NCBI RefSeq assembly: GCF_023546765.1
Contig: NZ_CP097484.1
Location: 5,194,501 to 5,258,500 of the forward strand
Origin: Methylobacterium tardum
GTDB lineage: Bacteria; Pseudomonadota; Alphaproteobacteria; Rhizobiales; Beijerinckiaceae
Reading direction: 5' to 3'
Length of the DNA: 64,000 nt
The translations under genes were made by a program, and so were the position numbers. The notes beneath the pieces are model-generated. The model saw only the letters and a list, made by a program, of their open reading frames with translations. It was not told where the DNA came from and searched no databases. Numbering within the stretch: the stretch's first letter is position 1; each line of letters begins with the position of its first letter. Below, in pieces: positions 12,246 to 46,003 of the stretch.

Positions 12246-14719
12246 GTGAGCGCGCAGCACGCAAACCTGCAGACCGGGAAGAGCCTCCTGCGCCACTGGC
12301 AGGAGTGTCGATCGCCGGGAGACCCCCTGCCGTCCTACGAGGCTGTCGTCCTGGGCAGCCTCGGGCGGCTCGCCGACCGGGCCGCCCTTGTGACGACCTG
12401 CGACGGCCGGCCACCGGGATCCTCTGGGCCGGCCAGGATTTCGGCGCCTGGCTGGCGCAGGATCCGGCCGGCCGGCCGGTCGCACCCGTCCCGGTCGAGT
12501 CCGTCCCGGTTCACGCCTTCCCGGTCGATCTCCGTCAGCCCATCGGCGAGGTCGTGGCGGCCGCGCTCGCCACCGGCGAGCCGGCCCACGGCCGGTGCGA
12601 CCGCCTCGCCGCCGGCGTCGTCACCTCGACCAGCCTGGTCGGCCTGCCCCTGGGCAACCGCTGGGGCGAGCCCTTCGTGCTGCTCGGGCTCGACGCCGCG
12701 AGCGTCCGCACCGAGCTCGTCCAGGCGATGTTCACCGCCACCGACCAGGGCATCCTGGCCCTGAGCACCGTCCGGGACGGCGACGGGCGCCCGGTCGATT
12801 TCAAGATCGTCGCCCTCAACGAAGGGGCCGAGCGCCTTCTGGAGCGTCCCGCGTCCGTCCTGCAATGGCAGCGCGTGGGTCACCTGTTCCCGGGGACGAT
12901 CACCGCCCGGACGATCGCCACGCTGGCCGCCATGGTCGAGCGGGGTGGCCGCGAGGCCTTCGAGTTGAGCCGGCCCCGCTCCGACGGCGGGACCCTGTAC
13001 CTCAAGGTCGAGGCGGGCTGCGTCGGCGACCTCCTGTCGATCACCATGACGGATGTCGGCGACATCAAGGCCCGGGAGGCCTCGTTCCGGCTCCTGTTCG
13101 AGAACAACCCGGTGCCGATGTGGGTCGTGGCCGAGGCGCGCGACCGGTTCCTGGCGGTCAACGACGCGGCCATCGCCCATTACGGCTATAGCCGCGATCA
13201 GTTCCTGGCCCGCGCGCCCGCCGATCTGGTCATCGCTCCCGAGGAGGCGGCGGGCCTCGGCCTGCCCGCCACCGGCGCGCTGCACCGCCGCGCCGACGGC
13301 TCGGCCATCGAGGTCTCCCTGTTCGAGCGGGCCCTGCCGTTCGGCGGAGAGCAGGCCGTCCTTGAGGCCGCGATCGACATGACCGAGCGCCGCCTGGCGG
13401 AGGCGCGCATCGCCCACATGGCCCACCACGACGCGCTCACCGGCCTGCCGAACCGGGTGCTGTTCCGGGACCGCCTCGGCGAGGCGATCGCGCGCCACGC
13501 CCGGAACGGCGAGGAATCGGTGCTGCTCTGCCTCGACCTCGACAAGTTCAAGATCGTGAACGACACGCTCGGCCATCCGGTCGGCGACGCGCTGCTGCGC
13601 GAGGCCGCCGAGCGGATCGCCGGATGCCTGAACAAGGACGACCTGGTCGCCCGGCTCGGCGGCGACGAGTTCGCGATCCTCGTGCGCGGGATCGGCCTGC
13701 CGGTGCTCGCCGACGGGCTGATCGCGCGCGTGATCGCCGAGCTCGCCCGTCCATTCCGCCTGGACGGCCAGGACTGCCATATCGGCACCAGCATCGGCGT
13801 GGCCTGCCTGCCCCGCGACGGGACCGATCCCGAGACGCTGATGAAGAACGCCGACCTCGCCCTGTACCGGGCGAAGGCGGAGGGCGGCGGCACCTTCCGG
13901 TGCTTCGAGCCGGAGATGGATGCCTGGGTCCAGGCGCGGCGGCGGCGCGAGAACGAGCTGCGCGAGGCCCTGGCCCGGGAGCAGTTCTCGCTCGTCTACC
14001 AGCCGCTGATGAGCGCGCAGGCCGACCGGATCCTCGCCTTCGAGGCGCTGCTGCGCTGGCACCACCCCGAGCACGGTCCGGTCTCGCCGGCCGAGTTCGT
14101 GCCGCTCGCCGAGGAGACGGGCCTGATCGTTCCGATCGGGGCCTGGGTGATGCAAACCGCCTTCGCCGAGGCGGCCGCCTGGCCGGAGGCGATCCGGCTC
14201 GCGGTCAACCTCTCTCCGGTCCAGTTCCGCAACCGCAGCCTCGCCGAGACTGTGCGCGACGCGCTCGCGGCCTCCGGGCTCGACCCGCGTCGTCTCGAGC
14301 TGGAGATCACCGAGTCGGTCCTGCTGGCCGACAGCGCCGCCAATCTGGCGACCCTGCACGCGCTCCGGGCGATGGGGATCCGCATCGCCATGGACGATTT
14401 CGGAACCGGCTATTCGAGCCTCAGCTACCTGCGCAGCTTCCCGTTCGACAAGATCAAGCTCGACCGGTCCTTCGTCAGCCAGGTCGGCGAGAACACCCAT
14501 TGCACGGCGATCGTGCGGGCGGTGGCGAGCCTCGGCACGAGCCTGGGCATCGCCACGACGGCGGAAGGCGTCGAGACCGCCGAGCAGCTCGCGATGCTGC
14601 GCGCCGAGGGCTACGACGAGGTCCAGGGCTTCCTGTTCAGTCGTCCGGTCCCGGCGCCGGCGGCGCGGCAGCTGATCGCGCGCGCCGTGGACGGTTTCTT
14701 CGGCGGCCGGGCGGCCTGA
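12246..14719 (+). pseudogene. PAS-GGDEF-EAL c-di-GMP protein with one apparent frameshift
   Basis: A PAS-like N-terminus, a second PAS around FRLLFENNPVPMWVV, then GGDEF and EAL domains. The cyclase site is canonical (RLGGDEFAIL) but the inhibitory RxxD is NKDD, so no I-site. The phosphodiesterase signatures FEALLRWHHP and DDFGTGYSSLSYL are intact, so both activities are possible. From the GTG at 12246 the protein-like frame (SLLRHWQECR..., ADRAALVTTCDGR) runs to about 12410; the correct continuation (ATGILWAGQDFGAWLAQ) is in the next frame. Adding one G in CGGCCGGCC (12404-12412) restores it. The ATG at 12305 in the downstream frame gives an Arg/Pro-rich false start. Probably intact in the living strain. 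Confidence 0.8.
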
Positions 14720-14747
14720 CGCCACCCGGCAGGCGCCTGCGGAACGC

Positions 14748-14924
14748 CTATTTGGTGATCTTCACCGAGACCGGGTCGCTCGACGGGAAAGTCTCCTCCA
14801 GGGCGTCGTCCAGGCGCTCGTTCAGCTTCTCCTGCTTGTTGTCGGGATTCTTCGCGTCGCCCGGCTTGGCGCTGCCCTGCTGGAAGCCCGGCTTGGTCTC
14901 GTTCGGCTTGTGGTCCTCGGCCAT
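14748..14924 (-). CDS. Small acidic/polar protein with FPSSDPVS motif, function unknown
   Basis: A 58-residue protein, ATG at 14924 to TAG at 14748. It begins MAEDHKPNETKPGFQQG and ends LDDALEETFPSSDPVSVKITK. The C-terminal LDxALExxFPxSDPxS motif recurs in short conserved proteins of alphaproteobacteria, whose role is unknown. The N-terminal half is rich in Lys, Asn, Pro and Gly and probably disordered. It overlaps nothing, lies convergent to the GGDEF-EAL gene 28 bases after its stop, and is too small for default gene length cut-offs. Confidence 0.75.
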   Translation of the reverse strand: MAEDHKPNETKPGFQQGSAKPGDAKNPDNKQEKLNERLDDALEETFPSSDPVSVKITK

Positions 14925-15306
14925 GTCGGTCGCTCATCGGTGACGGGGGCACGCAAGGGTGCCGGTGCGCATCAACGCGAGGCGCGGCGGGTGTTTCCGA
15001 TCTTTCCGGGCCGGCGCGTCAATCCGGCCGACCGCTTCGGATGGGCATCGCAGCGGGCTGCGCGGCTGCGCATGATCCTCAACTGAATGACGGCCTCTCG
15101 CGCGCCGTCATTCCGGGGCGCCGCAGGCGAGCCCGGACCCAAAGGGGCACGCCGGAGGCGGGCAATCCAGAACCACTGTCGGAGCAAATCATTGACACCT
15201 CGGCGGGTCTGGATCCCGGGCTCCGCTGCGCGGCCCCGGGATGACGGATGGGTGTCATCCGGCGCAGGTTCCGGCTCGGAGCGCGCGATGGTCCGACCCA
15301 GACGGT
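14925..15306. other. Intergenic region holding a family A repeat
   Basis: About 380 bases without a gene. The upstream part (14925-15100) should hold the promoter of the 58-residue protein on the minus strand. Bases 15106-15246 are a family A repeat, and the remainder leads to the stop of the glycosyltransferase gene. No terminator with a U-tract was seen. Confidence 0.6.
15106..15246. repeat. Dispersed palindromic repeat, family A, long copy
   Basis: Inverted ends CGTCATTCCGGGG (15106-15118) and CCCCGGGATGACG (15234-15246), with inner CCAGAACC and GGTCTGGATCC arms. Compared with the copy at 565-678 it carries about 27 extra bases (141 against 114) in the middle of the hairpin. Confidence 0.78.
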
Positions 15307-16571
15307 TCAGGCGGTCGCGAGCGGCCGCTCAACCGGGCCGCCGATCGCCGCGCGGGCGGCGGCCCCGCGCAGCACCGTCTCGTAGACGTCTCCGAGGCGG
15401 TCGAGATGCGCGTCGAGGCTCAGCGGTGCCGCCCAGTAGCGATCGTAGGCAGCCCGGCCCATGCGGGCGGCCAGGGCGTCGTCCGAAAGGCGCCGCAGAT
15501 GGGCAGCGAGCGCGTCCGGATCGCCCGAGCGGAACCAGAAGCCGGTCTCGCCGTCGGTGACCGCCTCGCGGCCCGCGCAGGCGTCGCTCACGATCACCGG
15601 CGTGCCGCAGGCCAGGGCCTCGTAGACGGTGAGCGGCTGGCCCTCGTACCAGACGCTCGGGAAGACCAGGGCCCGGGCCTGTCGCATCAGCGCCTGCACG
15701 CCGGCCGCGTCGCGCCAGCCGCGCATCTCAGCCTCAGGATAGCGCGCAGCGAGGTCGGCCCGCTCCGGACCGTCGCCCACGAACACCGCCCGCACCCCCG
15801 CCCGCCGGGCCGCCTCGGCGAAGATCGGCGCGCCCTTCTCGGTGGAGATCCGCCCCACGAACAGGAAATCGCCCGGCGCGTCTCCGGGCACCGGCGCCCG
15901 CGCCACAGCGATCGGGTTGTCGACCCGGTGGAACACGGTGCCGGGGGGCATCAGCGGCCGGACGACGCTCTCCTGGAGGTCGCTGATGGTGACGACGTGG
16001 GAAAACAGCTCCGGCAGCCGGGCCACATGGCTAAGCCCGATATGGCGGATCATCCGGGCAACCTTGCGCGGATAGCTGCGCGCGTCGCAATGCGCCCCGA
16101 TGCAGGCGGCCGACATCGGGGTCCGGTGGCAGATCCGCTGCTCCGGATAGGCGTAGAAGCCGCCGGTGGGGCAGACCAGGAAGAACTCGTGCATCGTGTA
16201 GAGGCAGGGCAGGCCCGAGGCCCGCAACGCCGTGCCGATCGACGGCGACAGCGCCTTGGCGAAGGCGTGGACGTGCACCACGGTGTCGCGGGGATCGCAG
16301 GCGGCGAGTTCCCGGGCAAGGGCGCGGCGCGCCGCACCGTTCCAGATCGCCTGGGCCGCGAAGGCCAGCTTGCTGCGCGCCGTGGTGACGTCGTCCTGCT
16401 CCAGGCAGACCACCCGGATGCCGGCGGGCTCCAGGCGCGGATCCACCGGGCCGACGGCCGCGAACAGGCTGACCCGGACGCCGCGGGCGGCGAGCCCCAG
16501 GGCGGATTCGATCGCCACCTTGGCCTGCCGCCGTTGATCGCGGCGTGATCTGCGACGAGGACGACGTGCAC
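15307..16571 (-). pseudogene. Glycosyltransferase family 4 with apparent 5-prime frameshift
   Basis: A GT-B fold glycosyltransferase of about 420 residues. The acceptor half includes YTMHEFFLVCPTGGFY; the donor half has DFLFVGRISTEKG and the nucleotide-sugar signature PSVWYEGQPLTVYEALACGTPVIVSD. The intact open frame starts at a GTG at 16518 (VAIESALGLAARG), but the true N-terminus, HVVLVADHAAINGG, is in another frame starting with GTG at 16571. One missing base near 16524-16533 separates them; the neighbour at 16685 shows the same N-terminal pattern uninterrupted. It probably transfers a sugar in surface polysaccharide synthesis at the inner membrane. Divergent from its paralogue. Confidence 0.8.
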
Positions 16572-16684
16572 GTCAGGAACTCCGCCGCTCCGATCCGGGA
16601 TCGAAGTCTGTAACCTGCCGCGGTTGATCGCCCGTAAACCGGTTTCCGCCATCGTTCCGGCCGCTGATGTCGGGACGATCTCCA

Positions 16685-21007: not shown

Positions 21008-23536
21008 ATGCGTCTGATCCTTCGTTTCTTCGGCATCCTGTTCAGCGCCGCGGCGGTGCTGTTCGTGGTCGGGGCGGCGGTCGGCGGCTACTTCTATTGG
21101 AAGTACAGCCAGGACCTGCCGGACCACGCGGCGCTCGCCAATTACGAGCCGCCGGTGATGACCCGCGTCCACGCGGCCGACGGCTCGCTGCTCGCCGAAT
21201 ATGCCCGCGAGCGCCGGCTGTACCTGCCGATCCAGGCGATGCCGAAGATCGTCGTGGCCGCCTTCCTGTCGGCCGAGGACAAGAACTTCTACAAGCACGG
21301 CGGCATCGACCCCGAGGGGATCGTGCGCGCCTTCCTGACCAACGCCAAGTCGGGCAAGCGGCAGGGCGCCTCGACCATCACCCAGCAGGTCGCCAAGAAC
21401 TTCCTGCTCTCGTCGGAGCAGACCTACGACCGGAAGATCAAGGAGGCGCTGCTGGCGCTCCGGATCGAGGCGGCCTACTCGAAGGACAAGATCCTCGAGC
21501 TCTACCTCAACGAGATCTTCCTCGGCACGATCGTCCCGGGCCGCAACCTCCACGGCGTGGCCGCGGCGGCGCTCGACTATTTCGGCAAGTCGGTCCACGA
21601 GCTGACCATCAACGAGGCGGCCTACCTCGCCGCCCTGCCGAAGGGGCCGAACAACTACCACCCCTACCGCAAGACCCAGGCGGCGCTGGACCGCCGCAAC
21701 GAGATCATCCGCCTGATGGCGGAGAACGGCTACATCACCAAGGAGGAGGCGGAGTCCGCCAAGAAGATGCCGCTCGGCGTCAACCCGCGCGTCGCCTTCC
21801 CGAACGCCGCCAACGCCAACTACTTCACCGAGGAGGTCCGCCGCGAGATCTCCGAGCGCTACGGCGAGAAGAAGCTCTACGAGGGCGGCCTGTCGGTGCG
21901 CGCCACCCTCGATCCGAAGATGCAGGCCTGGGCCCGCAAGGCGCTGGTCGACGGCCTCGTGCGCTACGACCAGGCCCATGGCTGGCGCGGTCCGGTCACC
22001 AAGGTCGACCTGACCGGGCGCGACTGGGGCATGGCGGCGGCCGAGGTCCCGGCGCTCGGCGACGTGGCGCCCTGGCGTCTCGCCGTGGTGCTGGGCAACG
22101 GCGGCGGCGGCGTGCAGGTCGGCCTGCAGCCCCGGCGCGAGGCGTCCGGCCAGGTCGGCAAGGACCGCGAGACCGGCGTGATCCCTCCCGAGGGCATGCG
22201 CTGGGCCGGCCGCGCCAACCTCCAGGCCGGCGACATGGTCTATGTCGAGGCGATGGAGGGCGGCCGCGGCCAGTTCCGCCTGCGCCAGAAGCCCGAGGTC
22301 TCCGGCGCGATCGTCGCCATGGATCCGAATACGGGCCGCGTCCACGCCATGGTCGGCGGCTTCTCGTACGACGAATCCGAGTTCAACCGCGCCACCCAGG
22401 CGATGCGCCAGCCCGGCTCCTCGTTCAAGCCGATCGTCTACTCGGCGGCTCTGGACAACGGCTACACCCCGGCGTCGATCGTGCAGGATTCGCCGATCAC
22501 CATCGAGGCCGGCCCCGGCCAGGAGGCCTGGACGCCCTCGAACTACGACGGCAAGTCCGGCGGCCCGCACACCCTGCGCTACGGCATCGAGCACTCGAAG
22601 AACCTGATGACGGTGCGGCTCGCCAAGGATGTCGGCATGCCGCTCATCGCCGAGTACGCCCGCCGGTTCGGCGTCTACGACGACATGCTGCCGGTGCTGC
22701 CGATGTCGCTCGGCGCGGGCGAGACCACGGTCATGCGCATGGTCACGGCCTACTCGATGCTGGCCAATGGCGGTCGGCGCATCCGCCCGACCCTGATCGA
22801 CCGGATCCAGGATCGCATCGGCGAGACGATCTACCGCCACGACAACCGCAAGTGCATCGGCTGCGACGCCGAGAAGTGGTCCGGCCAGGACGAGCCGAAG
22901 CTGGTGGACGATTCCGAGCAGGTCCTCGACCCGCTGACCGCCTACCAGATGGTCTCGATCATGGAGGGCGTGGTTCAGCGCGGCACCGCCACGATCCTGA
23001 AGCAGATCGGCAAGCCGCTGGCCGGCAAGACCGGCACGACGAACGACGCCAAGGACGCGTGGTTCGTGGGCTTCTCGCCGGATCTGGCGGTCGGCATCTA
23101 TATCGGCTTCGACAAGCCGCGCTCGCTGGGCGACCGCGCCACCGGCGGCGGGCTCGCCGCGCCGATCGCCCTGGAGTTCCTGAAGACCGCCCTCAAGGAC
23201 AAGCCGCCGACGCCGTTCCGCGTGCCGCCGGGGATCAAGCTGATCCGCGTCAACCTCGCCAGCGGCACCCGCGCCGGCTCGGGCGAGGGCGCCGGGACGA
23301 TCCTGGAGGCATTCAAGCCCGGCACCGCGCCGCCGGATTCCTACGTGGCGCCGTCCTCCGGCGGTGGCCGGCGGCGGCCCCCGCGGCGGTCCCGGCCGAT
23401 CCCGACCGGGCCGCGCAGGCCGGCGGGCTATACTGAGGGCGCCCCGTCGGGACCGGCGAGCCGTGATCAGGATCCTGCGCCGGTCCCCCTTCCGTGCGGG
23501 CTCGGATCTCGCGGCATCTCGGGCCGGGGCGCGTAA
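21008..23536 (+). CDS. mrcA: Penicillin-binding protein 1A (bifunctional peptidoglycan synthase); 3-prime end probably frameshifted
   Basis: A class A PBP: one membrane anchor (residues 5-30), glycosyltransferase domain GT51 (SAEDKNFYKHGGIDPEGIVRA, TITQQVAKNFLL), an OB-like insert, and a transpeptidase with SxxK (GSSFKPIVY), SxN (HSKNL) and KTGT (LAGKTGTTND). It polymerises and crosslinks peptidoglycan outside the inner membrane. ATG at 21008 fits MRLILRFFGILF. After about 23360 the frame becomes Arg/Pro-rich and runs to 23536. The next frame continues AAAPAAVPADPDRAAQAGGLY and stops at 23436, the usual GGLY ending of this family. One base is probably missing near 23360-23380, so the true gene is likely 21008-23436. 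Confidence 0.92.
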   Translation: MRLILRFFGILFSAAAVLFVVGAAVGGYFYWKYSQDLPDHAALANYEPPVMTRVHAADGSLLAEYARERRLYLPIQAMPKIVVAAFLSAEDKNFYKHGGIDPEGIVRAFLTNAKSGKRQGASTITQQVAKNFLLSSEQTYDRKIKEALLALRIEAAYSKDKILELYLNEIFLGTIVPGRNLHGVAAAALDYFGKSVHELTINEAAYLAALPKGPNNYHPYRKTQAALDRRNEIIRLMAENGYITKEEAESAKKMPLGVNPRVAFPNAANANYFTEEVRREISERYGEKKLYEGGLSVRATLDPKMQAWARKALVDGLVRYDQAHGWRGPVTKVDLTGRDWGMAAAEVPALGDVAPWRLAVVLGNGGGGVQVGLQPRREASGQVGKDRETGVIPPEGMRWAGRANLQAGDMVYVEAMEGGRGQFRLRQKPEVSGAIVAMDPNTGRVHAMVGGFSYDESEFNRATQAMRQPGSSFKPIVYSAALDNGYTPASIVQDSPITIEAGPGQEAWTPSNYDGKSGGPHTLRYGIEHSKNLMTVRLAKDVGMPLIAEYARRFGVYDDMLPVLPMSLGAGETTVMRMVTAYSMLANGGRRIRPTLIDRIQDRIGETIYRHDNRKCIGCDAEKWSGQDEPKLVDDSEQVLDPLTAYQMVSIMEGVVQRGTATILKQIGKPLAGKTGTTNDAKDAWFVGFSPDLAVGIYIGFDKPRSLGDRATGGGLAAPIALEFLKTALKDKPPTPFRVPPGIKLIRVNLASGTRAGSGEGAGTILEAFKPGTAPPDSYVAPSSGGGRRRPPRRSRPIPTGPRRPAGYTEGAPSGPASRDQDPAPVPLPCGLGSRGISGRGA

Positions 23537-24165: not shown

Positions 24166-25941
24166 TCACGCGGCCAGCGCCAGCCCTTCGTCCTCCTCCG
24201 CCTGGGCGGCCATGAACTGCGCCCGGGCGAGCTCGGCGAAGCGGCCGCCCTCGGCCACCAGCTGGTCGAAGGTCCCGGCCTCGGCGATCCGGCCCTCGTG
24301 GAACACCAGGATCCGGTCGGCGTCGCGGATCGTGGCGAGGCGGTGGGCGATCACGAAGGTGGTGCGCCCCTCCATCACGGTCTCCAGCGCGCCCTGGAGC
24401 TTGCGCTCGGTGGCGGCGTCCAGCGCCGAGGTCGCCTCGTCGAGGATCAGGATCGGCGGGTTCTTCAGGAGCGCCCGGGCGATCGAGAGCCGCTGGCGCT
24501 CGCCGCCCGAGAGCGACCGGCCGCGCTCGCCGATCACCGTGTCGAGCCCGTCGGCCTGGCGCGCCATGAAGGCGCTGGCCTGGGCCCGCTCCAGGGCGTC
24601 GAGCATCTCGGCGTCGGTGGCGTCGGGGCAGCCGACCTGCAGGTTCTCGCGGATCGAGCGGGCGAACAGCATCGGCTCCTGGAACACCACGCCGATGTTG
24701 TGGCGCAGGGAGGCGAGGCCGACGTCGCGGATGTCCATGCCGTCGATCCGGATCGAACCGGAGGCCGGGTCGAAGCTGCGGTGCAGGAGGCCGAGCGTCG
24801 CCGACTTGCCCGAGCCGGTGGTGCCGACCAGCGCGATCGTCTCGCCGGGCTTGGCGGTGAACGAGACGCCGTCGAGCGCTTGGCGCCTTCCGTCGTACGA
24901 GAAGGCGACGTCGTCGAAGGTGACCGCACCCTCGAAGCGGGCGACCTGCCGGGCATGCGGCCGGTCGGCCACCGCCGGGACGGTGTCGTAGATCTCGAAG
25001 AACTCGGCGATTTTCGGCGCCTGCTGAAACAGGCCGTTGACGAAGCCGACCACGTGGTCGAGCCGGGCCACGAAGGCGGTGGCGAGGCTCATGAAGGCCA
25101 CGACCTCACCCACTGTGGTGGTGCCGGCCTGGTAGAGCCAGATGCCGGTGACGAAGATCGCCGTCATGGTGATGGTCGCCGACGCCCGGGTCGCCACGTT
25201 GGCGAGCGCCCACCAGGACAGGACCGGGATCTGCGCGGCGAGCAGGTTGGTGATGATGCCGCGCATCGCCTCCTTCTCGGCCTTGGCGCGGGTGAAGGAC
25301 TGGATCACCGCGACGTTGCCGAGCGCGTCCGAGGCGTGGGCGGCGAGGCCCGAATTGAACTCCTCGACCTGACCCTGCAGCGTCTCGGTCCGGCGCATCA
25401 CGAAGGTGGTGAGCGCCGTGAAGGCCAGCACCAGCACCACCAGGATCGAGCCGAGCTGCCAGTTGATGAACAGGGTCATCGGCAGGAGCACGCCGAGCGA
25501 GACCAGGGCAACGAGGTGGTCGCGGAAGAAGCCGAGCCACAGCCACGCCATGCCGTTGGTGCCCTCCAGCATCGCCTTCAGGACGCGGCCGGAATGGTTG
25601 GCCGAGTGGAAGGCGAGCGGCAGGTCGAGGACGTGCTCGAAGTAGCTCGCCATCGATGACAGGCGGTTGCGGTGCGCGAGCCGGTCGGCGTGGAGCGCGA
25701 TGAATACGCCGGCCGCGATGGTGAAGAAGCCGAACGCCACCCAGGCGGCCAGCAGCGGCAGCATGGTGCCCATGGCGTCGCCGCCGCGCTTGAGATGGGT
25801 CAGCTGGTCGATGATCCGGCCCATCAGCAGCGGTTCGGCGAAGGCCGCCACCGCCAGCACGACGTTGGTGGTGGCCAAGCCTATGGCAAGCCGCCGCTCC
25901 GCCTTCAGGAATCCCAGGACCCGCCCGTACAGACGAACCAT
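24166..25941 (-). CDS. ndvA: Glucan exporter, ABC transporter permease/ATP-binding protein (NdvA/ChvA family)
   Basis: A 591-residue half-transporter. Residues 15-300 form a six-helix membrane domain, and residues 335-575 the ATPase: Walker [10 protein letters not shown], signature [16 protein letters not shown], Walker [13 protein letters not shown], switch IAHRLATI. The chain follows NdvA/ChvA closely (starting [20 protein letters not shown]), the exporter of cyclic beta-1,2-glucan to the periplasm for osmotic adaptation and host contact. No glucan synthase gene (ndvB) is near. ATG at 25941. Convergent with PBP1A. Confidence 0.92.
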
Positions 25942-26899: not shown

Positions 26900-29585
26900 T
26901 CAGCCCCCCGCGCTCCGCAAACCGCGGTCGCGCTGGGCCCGGCCCGGCTCACCGCCCTCGGAGACCGGCGCCGAGATCCCGAAACGGCTGGCGATCTCGC
27001 CCATGGCGCTCTGCATCGTGTCGAGGCCCTGCACGGTGACGATGCTGGAGCCGGGAGCGGCGGGATGAAGCCCGCCCCCGACAGGGTCGCGAACACCGAG
27101 AAGTTCAGGTCGGTCACCACCTTCTGGCCGAGGCTGACGTCCACGATCCACACGAGCAGCTCGAATTCCAGGAACGGGTCACCGATCTTCTTGAACACCA
27201 CCCGGGGCGGAGGCTCCTTCAGGATATCGGAATGCGCCTGCGCGCAGGCGGTGATCATCTCGGCGGCGCGCACCGGATCCTGGTTGCGCAGGACGCTGAC
27301 CGTGATGCTGACACGCCCGGTCCGGTCGCCACGCACCCGGTTCTTGACCACCCCGGAGATCAGGTTCGAGTTCGGCACGATCACGGCCGAGCGGTCGAAG
27401 GTCTGGATCTCGGTGGAGCGGACCGAGATCCGCTTCACGATGCCCTCGGAATCGCCGATCACCACCTGGTCGCCGACCCGGATCGGGCGCTCCCACAGGA
27501 GCAGCAGGCCGGAGACGAAGTTGTTGACGATCGACTGGAGGCCGAAACCGATACCCACCGACAGGGCGCCGGCCACGATGGTGAGCTTCTCCAGGCTCAG
27601 GCCGAGATACGAGAAGGCGAGCGCCAGCGCGATCAGGAAGCCGCAATAGCCCGCCACCGTGGTGATCGAGTTGCGCAGGCCCGCGTCGAGGTCGGTGGCC
27701 GGCAGGTAGGTGTTCTCCAGCCAGCGCTGCACGCCGCGGGTGATGAACACGCCGACCACCAGGATGCCGATCCCCAGCGCAATGCTCGACAGCGAGATCG
27801 TGACGTCCCCGACCTTGAAGCCGAAGAAGGCCTGCCGGACCGACGAGAGGATGTCGGTGGAGTCGAGACCCCAGGGTGCCAGAACCAGGACCGCGGCCGC
27901 CAGGAACAGGACGAGCCGGGCGGCCCCGGTCGCCAGGACCGAGATCTGGTTGAGCGAGCGCTTGCGCAGGCCGGTATTGGCCTGGAGCGTGGTGGCGAGC
28001 CGCGTCTCGTCGCTGAGCGCGCGGCCGACGAAGATGTCGACGCTCTGGACCAGCAGGTAGAGCAGCACGAGGACGGCCGCGTCCCAGATCAGCTGGTCGA
28101 TCAGGAAGGCCGCGAAGGCGACGTAGCCGACCAGCGCGCCGAGCCCGATCAGCGCCACCGCGGCCCAGCCCAGGAGCCGCGCCGGCCCGCCGATGCCCGT
28201 GGTGGTCTTGGTCGGCACGTAGGGACCGAAGCAGGCCTCCTCCTCCTGCTCGGTATCGGCGAAGCGGTGGAGGCCGACCGCCAGGATCAGCGCGGTGGCG
28301 ACCGCCCCGAGGCCGCGCGTGGCGATGGAGATCGGCAGGGCCGCCGAGATCCCGGAATTCAGCGCCTCGACGGACTTCACCACGGTGATCACCGTGGCGA
28401 TGCCGACCGCGAGCCGGGTCAGGCGGGTGGCCGCCGCGTCGCTCACCGGAGCGGGCCGCCAAGCCGGCTTCTCGGGGCTGAGCAGCCCGTCGCACAGGGC
28501 CTCCACGAAGGCGATGAAGGCCAGCCCGCCGAGGATGGCGGCGGCGACCGGCAGGAGCCGCGACGGCAGCAGGTTGGTGGAATCGAGGGCGTAGTAGACC
28601 GCGTAGGACCCGGCCACGGCCGGCACGGTGCCGAGCAGGATCACCCGCCAGGCGGCGAGCATCACGGCACGGCGCGACGGATCGGCCTTGCCGGCGTCCC
28701 GACGGGCGCCCTTGGGGGCGATGTTGCGCCGGCCGAAATACAAAGCCACCGAGATCCCGAAGGCGAGCCCCAGGAACAGCAGGTTGGCGAGGCTGCCGTT
28801 GCGGGAGAACAGCAGCCCGATATCCGACACGGCGCTCTGCAGGGCGCGCGTGTCCCGGGGCACGTCGCCCATCACCTTGGTCCAGAGCCCGGGGCCGACC
28901 AGCGGCTGGGAGCGCTGGAACAGGTCGCGGGTGAAGGATTCGCGGCGGCGGTTCGAGACCCGGTCGACGATCTGGTCGCCCTGAACCACCAGGGAGCGGG
29001 CCAGCCGCTGGGTCTCGTCGATGCGCGTGACTGCGGCCTCGCGCTCGACGCGCTGCTCGGCGACGTCGGCGCTCTCCTGGGTGTCTTTCGGCTTCGGTCC
29101 GAGCTGGGCCAGCCGCTCGCGGGCGGCCTCCAGCGGCGCGTCGAGGCGGGTGACCAGGGTGCGGATCTCGTCGGTCACCGTGGCGGCGCTGTCGCGGATG
29201 GCGGTGAGGTCGGCCACCGTCAGGTCGGTATGCCCCAGCTGCTTCTCGCGGGCATCGAGCTCGGCCTTGGCGGCGTCGATCTTGGCCCGGACCGCCTTGA
29301 ACTGCTCGGGCAGCTCGGCCTGCGCGTGCGGGCCGCGCCCGCGGGCGCGGCGGCCGGGGTCTTGGTTTCGGGCTTGGCTTCCGGCTTCGCGTCGGGCGCC
29401 TTGCCGGGCGTCGGAGTGCCCGCGGCGGGCTTGGTCTCCGCCGGGGCCGGCGCGGCCGCCTGCGCGAGGGCGGGCCGCGCTGCGCCAGCAGGAATCCCGA
29501 GCACCAGAGCGGCGAGAAGGGCGAGCGTGAGGGAGGGGCGTGCGCCGCCCCGCGGCGTCCGGGTACGCGCTGGCGTACGGTGCAT
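26900..29585 (-). pseudogene. Large MscS-family mechanosensitive channel (DUF3772) with two apparent frameshifts
   Basis: About 895 residues when repaired. Signal peptide (RPSLTLALLAALVLGIPAGAARPALAQA), a Pro/Ala/Lys linker, periplasmic DUF3772 coiled-coil region, about ten membrane helices, and an MscS pore and vestibule (VAGALSVGIGFGLQSIVNNF, GDQVVIGDSEGIVKRISVRSTEI). It should open on osmotic downshock. The signal-peptide frame (ATG 29585) leaves the main frame near 29322-29345, and the C-terminal frame (SSIVTVQGLDTMQSAMGEIA, stop 26900) leaves it near 27056-27066. Each join needs one added base. The uninterrupted middle frame covers about 800 residues. Probably intact in the living cell. 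Confidence 0.85.
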
Positions 29586-32136: not shown

Positions 32137-33128
32137 TCAGTACTTGCGCACCAGCGGGCCGGGGATCGGCTCCGGCATCAGCGGCGGCAGCGGGGCCGCG
32201 ACGACGCCGCCGAGGTAGTAGCGCAGGCCGATCTTCACGTCGTGCGCCTCGATGTCCTTCACCTTGATCGCCTGCAGGCTGCCGGTGCAGCACGGCACGT
32301 ATCCGGCGCCGGTCTCGGCCTTGCCGAGGTTCAGGTAGCGGTAGGCCAGCTCGACCTTGAACGCGTCGGTCACGTTGTAGGCGAGACCGGCGTGGAGCGC
32401 CCAGGCGAAGCTGCCGCTCGACTTGTCCTTGTAGAACTTGGTGCCGCTGTTGGTGTTGTAGACCGGGTTGCCGTTCGAGTCGTAGACCGGCTTGTAATTG
32501 TAGGAGGGTGCGCCGCAATCGCAGCCGTAGACCGGGTTGCCGTAATCGTATCCGTAGGTCGGGCTCGTGAACTGCTGGTTGGTCGAGTAGGACGAGATGT
32601 GGTTGAAGGCGTAGCCGACGCCGCCGCCGATGAACGGCGTGATGCCGTACCACGTGCCGAGATCGAAATACGCGTTGGCGAGCACGACGGCGGAGTCGAA
32701 GTGGCCGCTCGACTTGTTGACACCGTAGGAGCCGAGACCGTCATCGTAGTCCGGGCCGCGGTAGTACTCGCTGCCGCGCAGGCCGGTGGCGTAGCGGTAC
32801 TCGCCGGTGATGTCGCCGCGGAAGAACGGGGTGAACTGGTAGCCGACGCCGACCCCCGCGAAACCGCCGCTGCCGATCTCGTTGCCGAAGGACCGGTTGG
32901 ACTCGGCGTAGCCGGTGTAGTCGTAGGCCTCGCTGTACTTCGGACGGGTGTAGATGCTCGCGCCGACGTCGCCGCGCAGGTACCAGCCGCCGCCGACCTC
33001 GATCGGGGGGGCGGCGGAGGCGGCGGGGGCGGGGGCAGCAGATCCGCGGCGGCGGCGAGGCAGGGCGCGCCGACGCTCGCCACGAGCGTCAGGCTACGCA
33101 CCAAAGCGTTCAGCTTGGAGCGGGCCAT
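32137..33128 (-). pseudogene. Outer-membrane beta-barrel protein with apparent frameshift in a poly-C tract
   Basis: About 330 residues when repaired. ATG at 33128 gives a signal peptide (MARSKLNALVRSLTLVASVG, ending AAAADLL) and then a run of prolines. The frame breaks at CCCCCCC (minus strand, near 33006-33012): as given it goes into Arg/Ser/Ala-rich nonsense. With eight C it continues IEVGGGWYLRGDVGASIYTR and on through many barrel strands (PFIGGGVGYAFNHIS, LHAGLAYNV, VELAYRYLNLG, KIGLRYYLGG) to the stop at 32137. It belongs to the Tyr/Gly-rich barrels with periplasmic proline linker common in this order. Either a missing base call or homopolymer slippage. Confidence 0.82.
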
Positions 33129-33779: not shown

Positions 33780-33783
33780 CCGG

Positions 33784-38144: not shown

Positions 38145-38147
38145 CGA

Positions 38148-39303
38148 TCAATCCTTGGCGTGTGCGACCCCCAGGACGGATCCGCCACGCGGCTGTTCCG
38201 GTCCATCCGTGCACACTTCGCCAATGTAGGCGGGGGTGTCTCCGTTGCCAAGTAATTCGGGGGCCCCTGCGGCGAGGGCAGCATCCGCGGCCCTGCGGCG
38301 GCGCGGCGGCGCGGGGGCGAAGCGCACGGTGCCGTCGGCCTCCGCGGCGACCAGGAGCCCCGCCAGGGTGCGCCGGATCGGTGCGCCGCGACGCAGGGCC
38401 GGCAGCAGCGATTCGAGGACCAGCGCCTCGAGGCGTTCGAGCCGGCGCGGCGCTCCGCCGGCCCGGCTCAGGGCGAGATCGAGGCAGCGCAGAGCCACGG
38501 CGTCGGGCAGCGCCGCCAGGGCGGCACCATCGAGGCACAGGACCGCGCCCGTCGCCGCGCCGGGCAGAAGCGCGGTGTCGAGGGCCCGCGCCGCCGCGCT
38601 GCGGAGCGCGGCCTCGTCGCGGGCGGCGCGCGCGGCCAGGCGGGCGAGACGCGCCGGGGTCAGGCCCTCGCGCTCCAGGACCGGCCGGCCGCGCGCAGGC
38701 GGGCCCGGGCGAAGCGCGGATTCACGTTGGCGGGGTCGCGCAGATACGGGATGCCGCGGGCCTGCACCACGCCACCAGGGCGGATTTCGACAGGTGCAGG
38801 AAGGGACGGCCGAGCCTCAGGCCGGGGGCGAGCGCCCGTTCGGCGCGCATGCCGGCGAGCCCCGCGAGGCCGCTGCCGGCGGCGAGCCGCATCAGCACCG
38901 TCTCGGCTTGGTCATCCTGGGTGTGCGCGGTGAGGACGAGGCCGGCGCCGATCGCCTCGGCCTGGGCGGCGAGCAGGGCGTAGCGGGCGTTGCGGGCCGC
39001 GTCCTGCAGGCCGGTGCCGGGCTTCGGGCCCGACCAGGGCAGGATCGCGTGAACTAGGCCGAGGGACCGGGCGGCCTGGCCGACAGCGTGGGCCTCGGCG
39101 TCGGAGCCCGCCCGCAGGCCGTGGTCCACGGTGGCGACCTGGACGGATGCGCCGGTCGCGCGCCCCAGGATCGCGGCGGCGTGCATCAGGGCGGTCGAAT
39201 CGGGGCCGCCCGAGACGGCGAGGAGAACGCCCGGCCGGTCGCGGGTGGAACGGCCGAGCCAGGGGCTCAGGGCGTCGAGGACCGGATCGCCCGGCCCGCT
39301 CAA
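38148..39303 (-). pseudogene. tilS: tRNA(Ile)-lysidine synthetase with two apparent frameshifts
   Basis: About 385 residues when repaired. The N-terminal PP-loop domain has LLAVSGGPDSTALMHAAA (SGGPDS), TVDHGLRAGSDAEA and LVLTAHTQDDQAETVLMR. It makes lysidine at C34 of tRNA-Ile(CAU) and is essential in most bacteria. The first frame ends in RPAASRICATPPT; one extra C near 38760-38770 gives ARGIPYLRDPANVNPRFARA, and another near 38688-38700 gives LEREGLTPARLARLAARAA and the final part stopping at 38148. Because the gene is essential, missing bases in the sequence are likelier than real decay. Start is a TTG at 39303 overlapping the cpoB stop. Confidence 0.88.
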
Positions 39304-40277: not shown

Positions 40278-40562
40278 GATGCGGCTGCGATCCGGTGGCG
40301 GCGCGAGGCCCTATCAGATGCGCCGCACCGCGGCAAAACTGCGGCGCGTTCAACCTTTTGGGTCATCCGGCGGGACGCGCAGTCCCGGTTCGCTGCGTAC
40401 CCGCCCTCCCCCGAAGACTGCGACGGACCCCTGTACCGCTCGGGAGAGGGGCCCCGCGCATCATCCTGATGCCGCATCGTCACCCGCGCTGTGCAGATGC
40501 GGTCGCGGAGGGCGCGCCGCGACTCGCGACGCTTCACACAGAGGAGGCCGTTACGCCCTCCG

Positions 40563-41857: not shown

Positions 41858-41881
41858 GTCACAGACCCATCCGAGCCGGAC

Positions 41882-41951
41882 CGTCATCGCGCGCAGCGAA
41901 GCGACTGAGGGCGGCGCGACCGTGGATTGCTTCGCTCCGCTCGCAAAGACG
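41882..41951. repeat. Dispersed repeat, family B
   Basis: CGTCATCGCGCGCAGCGAAG at one end and ATTGCTTCGCTCCGCTCGCA followed by AAGACG at the other. The inner arms GCAGCGAAGCGA and TTGCTTCGCT are partly inverted. Second copy at 44233-44320 and an inverted relative at 23567-23657. Confidence 0.78.
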
Positions 41952-41989
41952 AGTCGGCCGGCTGGACGCCTGGGCTCCCGGGGGCAGCC

Positions 41990-43069
41990 TCAGCCGGCCC
42001 GGAACAGCGCCACGATGTCCGGCGCGGACAGCCACGCCTCCACCCGCGGGCAGGCGAGGTCGCCCGGCGGCGTCGCGTCGTAGATGGCGAAGCTCGCCGC
42101 GATGAAGCCCGGCAGGTCGTAGAGCGTCGGGAAGTCGTCGCCGCGCGCCTTGGTCTTGAACAGGTACGAGCCCGTCAGCCCGAAATGCTCGGCCACCGGC
42201 GGATAGATCGGCCAGATCACATCCTCGACCAGCTCGTCGCCAAGGTAATCCTCGATCTCCACCGGCTCGGGCGTGAGCCCGTTCTCCTGCAGCAGGCGCC
42301 GGGCGATGTCGCCGATCACATGGGCCTTCGGGTGGTTCATCAGGTGCATGAAGGCGCCGCGGCGCGCCCAGCGGGTCACCTCGCGCTCCAGGCCGAAGCC
42401 GAGGGCCGCCGCCGACCCGACGAGCTCGCGCACCGCCGGATCCCAGTGGTCGAGATAGCCCAGGCGGGCGAACACGTCCTCGCGGAACAGGGATGCGGTG
42501 CGCTTCGGGTCGAGGCCGAGCCGGTAGGCAGTGAGCGCGATCGCCGAGTGGTACTGCCCCGTGGGCGACGGGGTCAGCTTCAGCGCGGCGAGGTTCGACG
42601 CCTGGCCGACATAGACCATGTCGGGATGGAAGGCCGAGAACACGATCGCCGGGAACAGCTTGAGCCGCGGGTCGGCCGCCCGCACGGTGGCGGCATCGCC
42701 GCCCGGGATCAGCCCGGCCGGGAAACTCTGCGCGAAGACGTGGTCGTGGGCGCGGAGCGTCCGGATCAGGCCGTCGACATGACCGTGGTCGCGCTTGAGC
42801 GAGCCCATGGGCAGATAGCGCACCGGGCTCCTCGGCGCGAGCAGGCGCATCGCCTGCGCGACGCCCCGGGCCTGGCAATTGCCCAGCACCGCGATGCTCG
42901 GCCCGTCACGCCCGGTGGCGGCGCGGGCGCGGTTCCGCCATGGTGTCGCCCAGGTGGGGGCCCAACGGGTAGGCGCCCAGCTGGGCGCCGAGAGGGTGAA
43001 CGCGCTGCGGGCGCGCCGGGGCAGGTCGTTCAGGGCCACGTCGCGTGCCGGTGTCAGCGGACGGGTCAT
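41990..43069 (-). CDS. WcbI-domain polysaccharide biosynthesis protein
   Basis: About 359 residues. From residue 57 the chain is WcbI-like: IAVLGNCQARGVAQAMRLLAP (the LGNCQ motif), VFAQSFPAGLIPGGDAATV, FPAIVFSAFHPDMVYVG, and MNHPKAHVIGDIARRLL. WcbI proteins act in capsule or exopolysaccharide assembly, perhaps as acyl or acetyl-transfer enzymes, but the reaction is unproven. The first 55 residues (after ATG 43069) are Ala/Pro/Trp/Arg-rich and of uncertain reality; a frame change there cannot be ruled out. Divergent from the GSCFA gene 43 bases away, so the two probably share a control region. Confidence 0.8.
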   Translation of the reverse strand: MTRPLTPARDVALNDLPRRARSAFTLSAPSWAPTRWAPTWATPWRNRARAATGRDGPSIAVLGNCQARGVAQAMRLLAPRSPVRYLPMGSLKRDHGHVDGLIRTLRAHDHVFAQSFPAGLIPGGDAATVRAADPRLKLFPAIVFSAFHPDMVYVGQASNLAALKLTPSPTGQYHSAIALTAYRLGLDPKRTASLFREDVFARLGYLDHWDPAVRELVGSAAALGFGLEREVTRWARRGAFMHLMNHPKAHVIGDIARRLLQENGLTPEPVEIEDYLGDELVEDVIWPIYPPVAEHFGLTGSYLFKTKARGDDFPTLYDLPGFIAASFAIYDATPPGDLACPRVEAWLSAPDIVALFRAG

Positions 43070-43112
43070 CGCCCCCGAGGGCGGTCGCCGTCGTGAAGAA
43101 GAGGGTTCGAAG

Positions 43113-44180
43113 ATGGCGTTGAATCCGTATACGGGTCTACCGGCCGAGCGATTCTGGCGCAAGGTCGTCACCAACGTGCCGCCCTTCGCGGTCAATCCGC
43201 ACCCGAAGGACACCTTCGTGATCGGGCCGACCGACAAGGTCGCCACCGGCGGCTCCTGCTTCGCGCAGCGGGTGGCCGAGGCGGTGCGCGGCGCCGGCTT
43301 CAACTACTACCTGACCGAGCCGCCGCCCCCCGGCATGAGCGCCGAGGAGGCCAATGCCCGCCAGTTCGGCACGTTCTCGGCACGCTACGGCAATCTCTAC
43401 TACACGCGCCAGTTCGTGCAGCTGTTCGACCGGGCCTACGGGACGTTCGAGCCGGAGCTGAAGGCGTGGCTGCGCGACGACGGCCGCTACGTCGACCCGT
43501 TCCGCCCCACGGTCGAGCCGGCGGGTTTTGCGAGCGAGGCCGAGGTGGTCGCGGCGCGCGACGCGCATCTCGCCGAGGTGCGCCGCCTGTTCGAGACGCT
43601 CGACGTGTTCGTGCTGACGCTCGGCCTCACGGAAGGCTGGCGCTGGCGGGCCGACGGCGCGGCGCTGCCGCTCGCCCCGGGCGTTGCCGGCGGCACCTTC
43701 GACCCTGAGCTCTACGAGTGCGTCAACGCGGGCGCGGGCGAGGTGCTCGGCGACCTCAACGGCTTCCTCGACCGGCTCTGGAGCGTGAACCCGAAGGCGC
43801 GGGTGATCTTCACGGTCTCGCCGGTGCCGATGATCGCCACCTACATGGACCGGCACGTGATGGAGTCGAACAGCTACTCCAAGTCGGTGCTGCGGGTGGC
43901 GGCCGGCGAGGTGGTTGGCCGCGGCGACCCGCGGGCGGTCTACTTCCCCGCCTACGACATCGTCACGAGCAACGTGAATGCCGGGCGCTACTACAACGAG
44001 GACCAGCGCACCATCAACGACGCGGGCGTGCGCCACGTCATGCGCCTGTTCCTGGCGACCTTCGCCCGCGACCGGGTGAACGCGGCCCCGACCCACGCCC
44101 CCGTGGACCTCGCGGCGGAGTTCGAGGGCAATGCCGGCGTGATCTGCGACGAGGAGGAGATCGAGCGCAGCGTGGCGTGA
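43113..44180 (+). CDS. GSCFA domain protein
   Basis: A 355-residue protein. The signature GGSCFAQRVAEAVRG at about residues 48-62 names the family; the chain then has VFVLTLGLTEGWRW and FTVSPVPMIATYMDRHVMESNSYSKSVLR with a late YFPAYDIV motif. GSCFA is related to SGNH-type esterases/acetyltransferases, and such proteins are found beside polysaccharide genes. ATG at 43113 after GAAGAAGAGGG. Divergent from WcbI: both contain a Cys-bearing turn in the N-terminal part, and both may modify a surface glycan. The C-terminal tail is acidic (GVICDEEEIE). Confidence 0.87.
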   Translation: MALNPYTGLPAERFWRKVVTNVPPFAVNPHPKDTFVIGPTDKVATGGSCFAQRVAEAVRGAGFNYYLTEPPPPGMSAEEANARQFGTFSARYGNLYYTRQFVQLFDRAYGTFEPELKAWLRDDGRYVDPFRPTVEPAGFASEAEVVAARDAHLAEVRRLFETLDVFVLTLGLTEGWRWRADGAALPLAPGVAGGTFDPELYECVNAGAGEVLGDLNGFLDRLWSVNPKARVIFTVSPVPMIATYMDRHVMESNSYSKSVLRVAAGEVVGRGDPRAVYFPAYDIVTSNVNAGRYYNEDQRTINDAGVRHVMRLFLATFARDRVNAAPTHAPVDLAAEFEGNAGVICDEEEIERSVA

Positions 44181-44232
44181 CCGGGAAGCTTCGCCGGATC
44201 CGCCGCAGTCATGCGGTGAGGCTTGCCCGCAT

Positions 44233-44320
44233 CGTCATCACGCGCAGCGACGTGACCCAGGGCAACGCGCCATCACGATCGTGGCGCCGCCTGGATTGCT
44301 TCGCTCCGCTCGCAAAGACG
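44233..44320. repeat. Dispersed repeat, family B
   Basis: CGTCATCACGCGCAGCGACG at one end and ATTGCTTCGCTCCGCTCGCA then AAGACG at the other. Close to the copy at 41882-41951; the two bracket the WcbI-GSCFA pair. Confidence 0.78.
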
Positions 44321-44450
44321 GCGGCGGGTCGAAGCGCTCCGGGCGGAGGCCGTTCGCGGCCTCCGCCGGCAGGCGCGGCGATCCGGATTTGCCTTCGGCC
44401 GGGCGTTTCAGGCAAGCTTGGCCGCACGCGCGCCTCCGGAGACGAATCCC

Positions 44451-45050
44451 TTGAGCCTGCCCCCGCCCCGCCGCGCCGACCACGACATCGATCCGGTCTT
44501 CGTGAAGCGGCACTCGCCCCGCGCCTTCACGGGCGAGGCCGTGCCCGAATCCGAGCTGATGCGGATGATCGAGGCGGCGCGCTGGTCGCCCTCCGCCTAC
44601 AACTCGCAGCCCTGGCGCTTCCTCTACGCGCTCCGGGACGATGCCCATTGGGAGACGTTCCTGGGCCTGCTGGTGCCGGGCAATCAGAAATGGGTCTCGG
44701 GCACCGGCGCGATCCTGTTCCTGGTCTCGAACGGGCTCATGAAGGTCGGCGACGAGCTGAAGCCGTCCTACAGCCATTCCTTCGACGCCGGCACCGCCTC
44801 GCTGGCCTTCCAGCTCCAGGCGATCCACCAGGGCTGGCACGCCCACGGCATGGTCGGCTTCGACCATGTCCGCGCCCCCGAGGTGCTGCGCCTGCCCGAG
44901 AACCACCGGATCGAGGCCGCCTTCGCGGTCGGCCGCAAGACGCCCGAGGCGGAGCTCACCGAGGAGCAGCGGCCCCGCGAGACGCCGAACGGCCGTCGGC
45001 CGATCACCGACTTCACCCTCGCGGGCCCGTTCCCGCAGCAAGCGGGCTGA
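44451..45050 (+). CDS. Nitroreductase family protein
   Basis: About 199 residues. RHSPRAFTGEAVPESELMRMIEAARWSPSAYNSQPWRF contains the FMN-binding turn (SPSAYNSQPW) of the nitroreductase fold; the middle has FDAGTASLAFQLQAIHQGWHAH and the family end-like FAVGRKT. Such enzymes use NAD(P)H and FMN to reduce nitro-aromatics, quinones or flavins. The best start is a TTG at 44451 with GGAGA at 44436-44440; a TTG at 44418 would add an Ala/Pro stretch. Physiological substrate unknown. The next gene starts 157 bases downstream in the same direction. Confidence 0.85.
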   Translation: MSLPPPRRADHDIDPVFVKRHSPRAFTGEAVPESELMRMIEAARWSPSAYNSQPWRFLYALRDDAHWETFLGLLVPGNQKWVSGTGAILFLVSNGLMKVGDELKPSYSHSFDAGTASLAFQLQAIHQGWHAHGMVGFDHVRAPEVLRLPENHRIEAAFAVGRKTPEAELTEEQRPRETPNGRRPITDFTLAGPFPQQAG

Positions 45051-45206
45051 GGCGGGCTGGAACCGGTGGCCGAGACCAGGGATTGTGCCCGCATCGCAAG
45101 CCCGTCACGGGCTTGGCCGCCACCGCCGCAGACTGCGGCGGCGGGGCAGCGGATCGCCGGTCCCGTACCGATCCTGTCCGCCCTGCGACGCATCGGGAGC
45201 TGGCTC

Positions 45207-46003
45207 ATGGATCCGTCCGACAGCGCCTCACCCGACGATTTCTCCGGTGACGGGCAGCCCGACCACGCGTCGGGGCTGCGCAGCGTGGCCGAGCGCCACG
45301 GCGTCAGCCTCGATGCCGTGCGCCATCTGGTGCGGGCGCTGGAGCGCGGCCACGGCACGATGGCGCAGTTCGACCATCCCGATCTCGGTGGGATGGGCCA
45401 GTGGTTCGCCGGCGGCATGGTCATGGTCGGCCGGATGTTCGACGACGCCCTGAAGGCGCGGGTCGGGGCGCTCTGCACCGAGCTGGCCGGCGCGCTGCCG
45501 GCGGGCGGCTTCTCGGAGGCGGGACCCACGGCGCGGCGCGGCGGCGGCGAATGGTGGCCGGCGGGCCTCGGCGCTCCGGCGAGCACCGGCTCGCAGAATG
45601 GGATGCGCTACGCCTATTTCCCGGAGCACCGGCGGCTCGCGGTCGAATCGGGCTCGGGCGTCGCCCTCTACGATACCGGCGAGCACCGCATCACGGGCGT
45701 CTCGCAGGCGAATGGCAGCCTCGGGTTCACCGGGCCGGCCGGCGCCGTCGCGCTCGATCGCCTCCGCCGGATCGAGGCGGCGGTCGCCGCCCCGCGCCAG
45801 GGGGATCCGGGCCAAAAGGGGCTCGCCAAGCGGACCGGCACCCGGCGGAGCCGTCCGGGATCCAGGCAGCCGGCGCGCCGGCTGCCTCGCCGCCGGACGA
45901 CGTGCTCACGACCATCGACCGGTTGGCGGAGCTGCACGCGCGCGGCGTGCTCACCGATCAGGAATTCTCGACCAAGAAGGCAGAGCTGCTGGCGCGGCTG
46001 TGA
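45207..46003 (+). pseudogene. SHOCT-domain protein with one apparent frameshift
   Basis: About 265 residues when repaired. ATG at 45207 after GGGAG. The N-terminal part (VAERHGVSLDAVRHLVRALERGHG) looks like a helix-turn-helix-like or tetrameric module, then a Gly-rich globular stretch (WFAGGMVMVGRMFDD, YAYFPEHRRLAVESGSGVALYD, ITGVSQANGSLGF). The SHOCT motif at the end (IDRLAELHARGVLTDQEFSTKKAELLARL, in part) is in the second frame and stops at 46003. One base is missing between about 45795 and 45850. SHOCT marks small oligomerisation or proteolysis-linked proteins; exact role unknown. Confidence 0.78.

What the first reader, a model, noticed from the sequence alone, without database searches (positions are those of the whole stretch)
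12246..46003. Nine single-base deletions in seven genes, all of one type
Seven genes read through only if one base is added at nine places: 12404-12412 (GGDEF-EAL), 16524-16533 (glycosyltransferase), 23360-23380 (PBP1A), 27056-27066 and 29322-29345 (MscS), 33006-33012 (barrel), 38688-38700 and 38760-38770 (tilS), 45795-45850 (SHOCT). Reading direction shows each is a missing base, never an extra one, and all lie in G/C-rich runs. TilS is essential in most bacteria. This is the signature of under-called bases in the assembly, so other annotations near GC runs should be treated with care.
Basis: partly seen in the sequence, partly recalled or inferred. Interest (0 to 1): 0.72.

Follow-up and report, generated by a model that had tools for sequence, protein, structure and literature searches.

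The report
Assembly errors at modified DNA motifs
The nine broken reading frames are most likely mistakes in a public bacterial genome sequence rather than real mutations, and many such mistakes in this genome fall on two short DNA words, as if chemical marks on the DNA had misled the sequencer.

Summary
At all nine places the window is one base short, modulo three, against relatives (2 of 2 up to 65 of 65 loci; one dissenting locus at each of two sites). One place, 27056-27066, lacks four bases. The host is Methylobacterium. An assembly artefact is strongly supported: close relatives are in frame, selection by codon position is the same after the breaks as before, and secA, tilS and ccrM are hit too. 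But G/C runs are not the main cause. In five stretches, 71 of 801 matched genes carry 79 frame changes, 64 loss-type and 15 gain-type. Of 58 single-base losses 18 fall in CCWGG and 7 in runs of four or more; 30 fit neither. Six of 11 single-base gains fall at TCGTCGA. The larger error is hidden: TCGACGA in relative G010 reads TCGGCGA here at 225 of 702 sites, 3 of 448 in reverse, and its one-letter variants stay at 2.3% or less. It alters residues invariant in 27 of 27, 59 of 59 and 60 of 60 relative loci. Best explanation: modified-base miscalls in native, nanopore-type reads. Reads were not available; platform and modification are inferred.

The parts
12404..12412 (+). Frame break in a PAS-GGDEF-EAL gene, about 62 codons from its start and before the matched domains
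   Evidence: 2 of 2 relative loci one base longer; G002 phase test; domains; one of two relatives has CCWGG within 10 bases
16524..16533 (-). Frame break about 18 codons from the start of a group 1 glycosyltransferase gene
   Evidence: 4 of 4 loci; CCWGG at the break in G010; intact relative scanned
23360..23380 (+). Frame break in the tail of a class A penicillin-binding protein gene, after its matched domains
   Evidence: 2 of 2 loci, by 1 and 4 bases
27056..27066 (-). Four-base shortfall near the end of an MscS-type channel gene (DUF3772)
   Evidence: 65 of 65 loci four bases longer
29322..29345 (-). Frame break near the start of the same MscS-type gene, in a variable stretch
   Evidence: 22 of 22 loci agree modulo three only
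33006..33012 (-). Frame break about 41 codons from the start of a possible outer-membrane barrel gene, in a G run
   Evidence: 43 of 44 loci; OMP_b-brl below its cut-off in the relative
38688..38700 (-). Second frame break in tilS, about at the end of the PP-loop domain
   Evidence: 42 of 43 loci; CCWGG at the break in G010
38760..38770 (-). First frame break in tilS, inside the PP-loop domain (this copy matches 2-157 of 182 model positions, the relative 2-181)
   Evidence: 43 of 43 loci; only PF01171 match in this genome
45795..45850 (+). Frame break in a SHOCT-domain gene, in a variable stretch before the domain
   Evidence: 3 of 3 loci agree modulo three only
10968..10974 (+). TCGACGA-type substitution in an acyl-CoA dehydrogenase gene: Gly here, Asp in relatives
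   Evidence: 27 of 27 relative loci; domain
24281..24287 (-). TCGACGA-type substitution in an ABC transporter gene: Ala here, Val in relatives
   Evidence: 59 of 59 relative loci; domain
24798..24804 (-). TCGACGA-type substitution in the same ABC transporter gene: Ala here, Thr in relatives
   Evidence: 60 of 60 relative loci

Best explanation
The frame breaks are errors of the assembled sequence, not mutations. Most likely the genome was read from native DNA by a nanopore-type method; modified bases at two motifs at least (CCWGG and the asymmetric 7-mer TCGACGA) disturbed base calling in a systematic way, and the consensus kept the miscalls: lost bases at CCWGG, adenine read as guanine and now and then an extra base at TCGACGA. 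Ordinary under-calls in G+C-rich DNA add the rest. Shown here: relatives in frame, no relaxed selection after the breaks, motif specificity, conserved residues altered, similar rates in coding and non-coding DNA. Inferred: that the motifs are modified, which base bears the mark, and the sequencing platform.
For: Relatives one base longer modulo three at all nine places. 79 frame changes in 71 of 801 matched genes, spread over five stretches of the chromosome. Substitutions by codon position 2.41/2.03/11.36% before breaks, 2.71/1.98/11.76% after, 2.70/1.86/12.26% in intact genes. 18 of 58 single-base losses in CCWGG, which covers 2.3% of coding bases; break reads exactly CC|GG in 18 of 57. TCGACGA to TCGGCGA at 225 of 702 sites against 3 of 448 in reverse, one-letter variants at or below 2.3%; a set of sites not looked at when the motif was found gives 32 of 91. 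Among converted or kept sites: coding 214 of 560, non-coding 11 of 27; background 2.7% and 0.9% at codon positions 1 and 2 (96 coding and 12 non-coding sites with other changes left out). Third genome: of 66 sites with the motif in both G010 and G002, 20 converted only here; none converted in G010 alone. Published precedent: Dcm-site errors (PMC6591954, passages) and motif-bound A/G or C/T ambiguity reduced by PCR (PMC11610573, passages).
Against: No reads or platform record were seen. 30 of 58 losses fit neither CCWGG nor a run of three or more. Only about 0.7% of CCWGG sites lose a base (30 of 4159). By the test against G010 only two of the nine window breaks lie in CCWGG. In the seven genes other than tilS's PP-loop the breaks lie outside matched Pfam domains, which real tolerated mutations would do too. 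No enzyme could be tied to either motif, and G010 also has methyltransferase genes.
Confidence: 0.85

Rival explanations
1. Plain under-calling in homopolymers and G/C-rich stretches of a long-read assembly, with no part played by base modification.
For: Loss-type events outnumber gain-type 64 to 15; 40 of 58 single-base losses are not in CCWGG, 10 lie in runs of three or more; 33006 lies in a G run.
Against: Runs of five C or G behave alike in both directions; CCWGG losses and TCGACGA substitutions are one-sided and word-specific; under-calling does not make A-to-G substitutions.
Confidence: 0.1
2. Real mutations: a recent burst of frameshifts and motif-bound A-to-G changes in this lineage, from a repair defect or a mutagenic DNA modification.
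For: The changes are specific to this genome, and modified bases can be mutagenic (general knowledge). In most of the seven genes the breaks lie outside matched domains.
Against: secA, ccrM and the only tilS are broken; 214 of 560 coding motif sites changed at codon positions 1 or 2, at the rate of non-coding sites (11 of 27); residues invariant in 27, 59 and 60 relative loci changed.
Confidence: 0.03
3. Programmed or phase-variable frameshifting at the nine places.
For: Only the frame breaks themselves; the G run at 33006 could slip.
Against: No break is kept in close relatives, and breaks strike unrelated genes in all five stretches.
Confidence: 0.02

Closest known systems
Dcm-motif (CCAGG/CCTGG) consensus errors in nanopore assemblies (PMC6591954; passages seen)
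   Same: Single-base errors concentrated in CCWGG; run-length errors are a second class.
   Different: That is Klebsiella with known Dcm methylation and about 70% of errors in Dcm motifs for then current basecallers; here 18 of 58 coding losses, methylation not shown, and a second motif dominates.
Methylation-induced A/G and C/T ambiguities in nanopore assemblies (PMC11610573; passages seen)
   Same: Purine or pyrimidine confusion bound to short, strain-specific motifs in reverse-complement pairs.
   Different: Their motif (RACG/CGTY) is not TCGACGA; they had reads and PCR controls, here only the finished assembly.
Homopolymer under-calls of long-read assemblies (general knowledge; also a class in PMC6591954)
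   Same: Loss-biased frameshifts in a G+C-rich genome.
   Different: Runs of four or more hold only 7 of 58 single-base losses.

Membership tests
Methylation-induced nanopore consensus errors | Errors confined to a short motif | tested here: met
   TCGACGA converted at 225 of 702 sites, one-letter variants at or below 2.3%
Methylation-induced nanopore consensus errors | Error is A/G on one strand, T/C on the other | tested here: met
   TCGACGA to TCGGCGA and its complement; 193 of the changed sites in the first set, 3 in reverse
Methylation-induced nanopore consensus errors | Strand bias of the wrong base in the reads | not testable with these tools
   No reads held
Methylation-induced nanopore consensus errors | Errors vanish or fall when DNA is amplified before sequencing | not testable with these tools
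   Needs new sequencing
Methylation-induced nanopore consensus errors | The motif is modified in the cell | not testable with these tools
   Candidate enzymes exist, none tied to a motif
Dcm-motif errors | Errors enriched at CCWGG and not at CCSGG | tested here: met
   CCWGG 30 of 4159 against 8 of 4105 (p 5e-4); CCSGG 38 of 8110 against 28 of 8234 (p 0.22)
Homopolymer under-calls | Most losses lie in runs of one base | tested here: not met
   10 of 58 in runs of three or more outside CCWGG
True pseudogenes | Relaxed selection in the part after the break | tested here: not met
   Codon-position pattern after breaks equals that of intact genes
True pseudogenes | Some relatives share the break | tested here: not met
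   Out of all loci none shares a break for certain; one locus at 33006 has equal length, one at 38688 differs by two

The most novel reading that the evidence does not exclude
The errors are a readable footprint of this strain's DNA modification: an asymmetric 7-base word, TCGACGA, which two targeted literature searches did not show as a known bacterial motif, and CCWGG are modified genome-wide in a Methylobacterium, while G010, compared the same way, shows no such footprint. The mark on TCGACGA most likely sits on or next to its central adenine and is made by an adenine methyltransferase of this strain, for instance the 1041-aa type IIG-like enzyme or the 1338-aa DrmMI/IIG-like enzyme beside DpdE-like and DruE-like helicase genes. 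If so, modification motifs can be mined from finished assemblies alone, without signal data.
Probability: 0.6. Interest if true: 0.5.

Novelty: not a real feature. Interest (0 to 1): 0.35.

Why it matters
A genome rated 99.91% complete has a frame change in 71 of 801 tested genes and 225 motif-bound substitutions in 956 kb of alignment. The coding ones lie at codon positions 1 and 2 and leave the frame intact, so a frame check would not show them. Pseudogene calls and missing essential genes in this genome, and Asp-to-Gly, Val-to-Ala or Thr-to-Ala differences at this word, should not be trusted without reads. In return, a one-way motif comparison between close relatives is a simple test that can flag such assemblies and hint at their DNA modification.

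Tried and rejected
Plain count of one-base gaps in whole-window alignments was too noisy: natural indels and the paralogous pair at 55-62 kb dominate. tblastn chaining missed the tilS and SHOCT breaks. Both were replaced by phase tracking along genes. A neutral test on 23S rRNA was dropped: the family search gave no match in this genome, G002 or G010. A third motif among the 30 other losses was not found, though several read CC|GG here where the relative has diverged. The strain was not identified; one Methylobacterium paper seen in passages is another strain (PMC9904496). Literature on TCGACGA: 10 of 24 papers listed and 10 of 10 listed, judged by title only; none names this word as a DNA modification motif, though two are about Dam methylation. 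One search was too broad to use.

Density of the nine: nine in 64 kb against 79 in about 1.12 Mb compared is roughly twice the mean; I make nothing of it, because the window was picked for having them.

Results against my reading, kept in view: my own genes laid on G010 give 35 phase changes (10 loss-type, 25 gain-type in G010; 689 of 758 genes matched). Most of these are mirror images of the breaks here, but not all; one gene gives three loss-type changes in G010. The short-stretch ratio TCGACGA to TCGGCGA varies from 0.23 to 1.04 among 52 named relatives' loci, so the ratio alone proves nothing for one locus. Three of the 16 window substitutions have relatives with the same base.
Full report
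Where it is. The window is G000:C1:5194501-5258500 of a 6.94-Mb, two-contig genome. The closest named matches to its MscS-type gene are Methylobacterium, 92-95% identical in protein, a genus of plant-associated methylotrophs by general knowledge. Three unnamed close relatives were used: G002 (97% DNA identity in a test gene), G010 (96%) and G007 (94%). From memory, the length of G002's main contig fits M. radiotolerans JCM 2831; no call shows this.

The observation. At each of the nine places I measured the number of bases between conserved anchors here and in each relative locus that aligned. The window is one base short, modulo three, in 2/2, 4/4, 2/2, 65/65, 22/22, 43/44, 42/43, 43/43 and 3/3 loci, in window order. 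The counts are loci, and a few come twice from one genome. Phase tracking along genes finds all nine with G002, eight with G010 and five with G007. The G007 comparison adds five calls that the others do not give, and G007 shows frame changes of its own against G002 and G010. At 27056-27066 the shortfall is four bases in 65 of 65; at 23360, 29322 and 45795 only the remainder is certain. In all but tilS the breaks lie outside matched Pfam domains. tilS is cut once inside its PP-loop domain and once about at its end, and it is the only PF01171 gene in the genome.

It is genome-wide. About 1.12 Mb of this genome in five stretches was compared with G010. Of 889 predicted G010 genes 801 matched; 71 of them carry 79 frame changes here, 64 loss-type and 15 gain-type, in 792 kb of coding DNA. 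Between relatives such changes are rare: G002 genes on G010 give 0 in the window region and 1 in the wider region and 0 at recA, rpoC and secA; G010 genes on G002 give 3, all in one gene, and 0 at those three places. secA is shifted near its end: its open frame is 1214 codons here, 987 to 989 in three relatives. ccrM, essential in many alphaproteobacteria by general knowledge, is split into two frames.

The breaks are not decay. Substitutions at codon positions 1, 2 and 3 are 2.70, 1.86 and 12.26% in intact genes, 2.41, 2.03 and 11.36% before breaks, and 2.71, 1.98 and 11.76% after breaks. The part after the break still evolves in the relatives' frame.

The cause is partly motif-bound. Of 58 single-base losses 18 fall in CCWGG, which covers 2.3% of coding bases, 7 in runs of four or more, 3 in runs of three, and 30 in none of these. 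In this genome the break reads exactly CC|GG in 18 of 57, and CCGG lies within four bases in 27 of 57 against 14.6% at random places. Over all aligned DNA, CCWGG loses a base at 30 of 4159 sites here and 8 of 4105 in reverse (p 5e-4); CCSGG at 38 of 8110 and 28 of 8234 (p 0.22). Runs of five C or G lose a base at 25 of 1159 here and 19 of 1042 in reverse. Six of 11 single-base gains lie at TCGTCGA; over all aligned DNA gains at that word are 7 of 702 here and 0 of 448 in reverse (p 0.047). Of the nine window breaks, 16524 and 38688 lie in CCWGG by comparison with G010, and at 12404 one of two relatives has the word within ten bases.

The larger, hidden error. A scan of k-mers of four to seven bases for one-way change gave one strong outlier: TCGACGA (complement TCGTCGA) in G010 reads TCGGCGA (TCGCCGA) here. 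In all five stretches the word occurs 702 times in G010's aligned DNA: 362 are unchanged here, 225 converted, 108 otherwise substituted and 7 have an extra base; in reverse 3 of 448 are converted. One-letter variants are converted at 0 to 2.3%, and flanking bases have little effect. A stretch not looked at when the word was found gives 32 converted, 42 unchanged, 17 other. Coding sites all lie at codon positions 1 and 2, so none is synonymous at the third base; 214 are converted and 346 kept (38%), non-coding 11 and 16 (41%), with 96 and 12 other changes left out; the background rates are 2.7% and 0.9%. With G002 as third genome, of 66 sites where both relatives have the word 20 are converted only here, 43 kept and 3 otherwise changed; none is converted in G010 alone. 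Without alignment, TCGACGA stands at 448 per Mb here and 744, 736 and 600 in G002, G010 and G007, TCGGCGA at 1479 against 1283, 1275 and 1300 (one 20-kb overlap in this genome's stretches counted twice). The window holds 16 such sites, 13 with the word in G002 too. Among them are residues invariant in 59 of 59, 60 of 60 and 27 of 27 relative loci; at three sites (19236, 20494, 31598) some relatives have the base seen here.

Mechanism. One fixed base of an asymmetric word is miswritten at about a third of its sites, with no heed to selection. That is what a consensus would make of reads that err on one strand. Published work reports such errors for nanopore data: in Dcm CCWGG sites (PMC6591954, passages), and as A/G or C/T ambiguities bound to strain-specific motifs that fell from 2357 to 44 with PCR-amplified DNA of ten isolates (PMC11610573, passages). 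The step from motif to modification, and to the platform, is inference. Candidate enzymes exist: a C5-methyltransferase gene, itself frame-split, beside a Vsr gene and a NOV_C gene in DNA of lower G+C, with no PF00145 match in G002, G010 or G007; a 1041-aa type IIG-like enzyme and a 1338-aa DrmMI/IIG-like enzyme beside DpdE-like and DruE-like genes; and more N4/N6 enzymes. G010 has PF02384 genes and all three relatives have PF01555 genes too, so presence alone proves nothing.

Verdict. The frameshifts are not a biological feature.

Noticed in passing
L203:15435-19004 (G000:C1 about 2177435-2181004): A C5-methyltransferase gene split over two frames lies beside a Vsr endonuclease gene and a NOV_C gene in DNA of lower G+C; predicted genes with equal scores in opposite orientation lie about 35 kb apart on either side, as paired insertion elements might.
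   Followed up: partly
L246:41-12091 (G000:C1 1418041-1430091): Three neighbouring genes of 1338, 948 and 1796 codons match DrmMI or type IIG methyltransferase, DpdE/DrmD and DruE models: a possible mixed anti-phage defence operon.
   Followed up: partly
L232:902-2239 and L232:1444-2100 (G000:C1 577815-578485): The conserved CcrM gene is split into two frames here; the two pieces match model positions 156-348 and 2-155.
   Followed up: partly
L134 about 2740 (secA stretch, G000:C1 about 601512): secA is frame-shifted about 130 bases before its end, giving an open frame of 1214 codons against 987 to 989 in relatives.
   Followed up: partly
55368-61957: Two adjacent large genes are paralogues, about 65 to 74% alike in DNA in the pieces that cross-align; they carry six of the window's 16 TCGACGA-type substitutions.
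   Followed up: no
L093-L096 (G007 stretches): G007 shows several frame changes against G002 and G010, so its assembly may have errors of its own.
   Followed up: no
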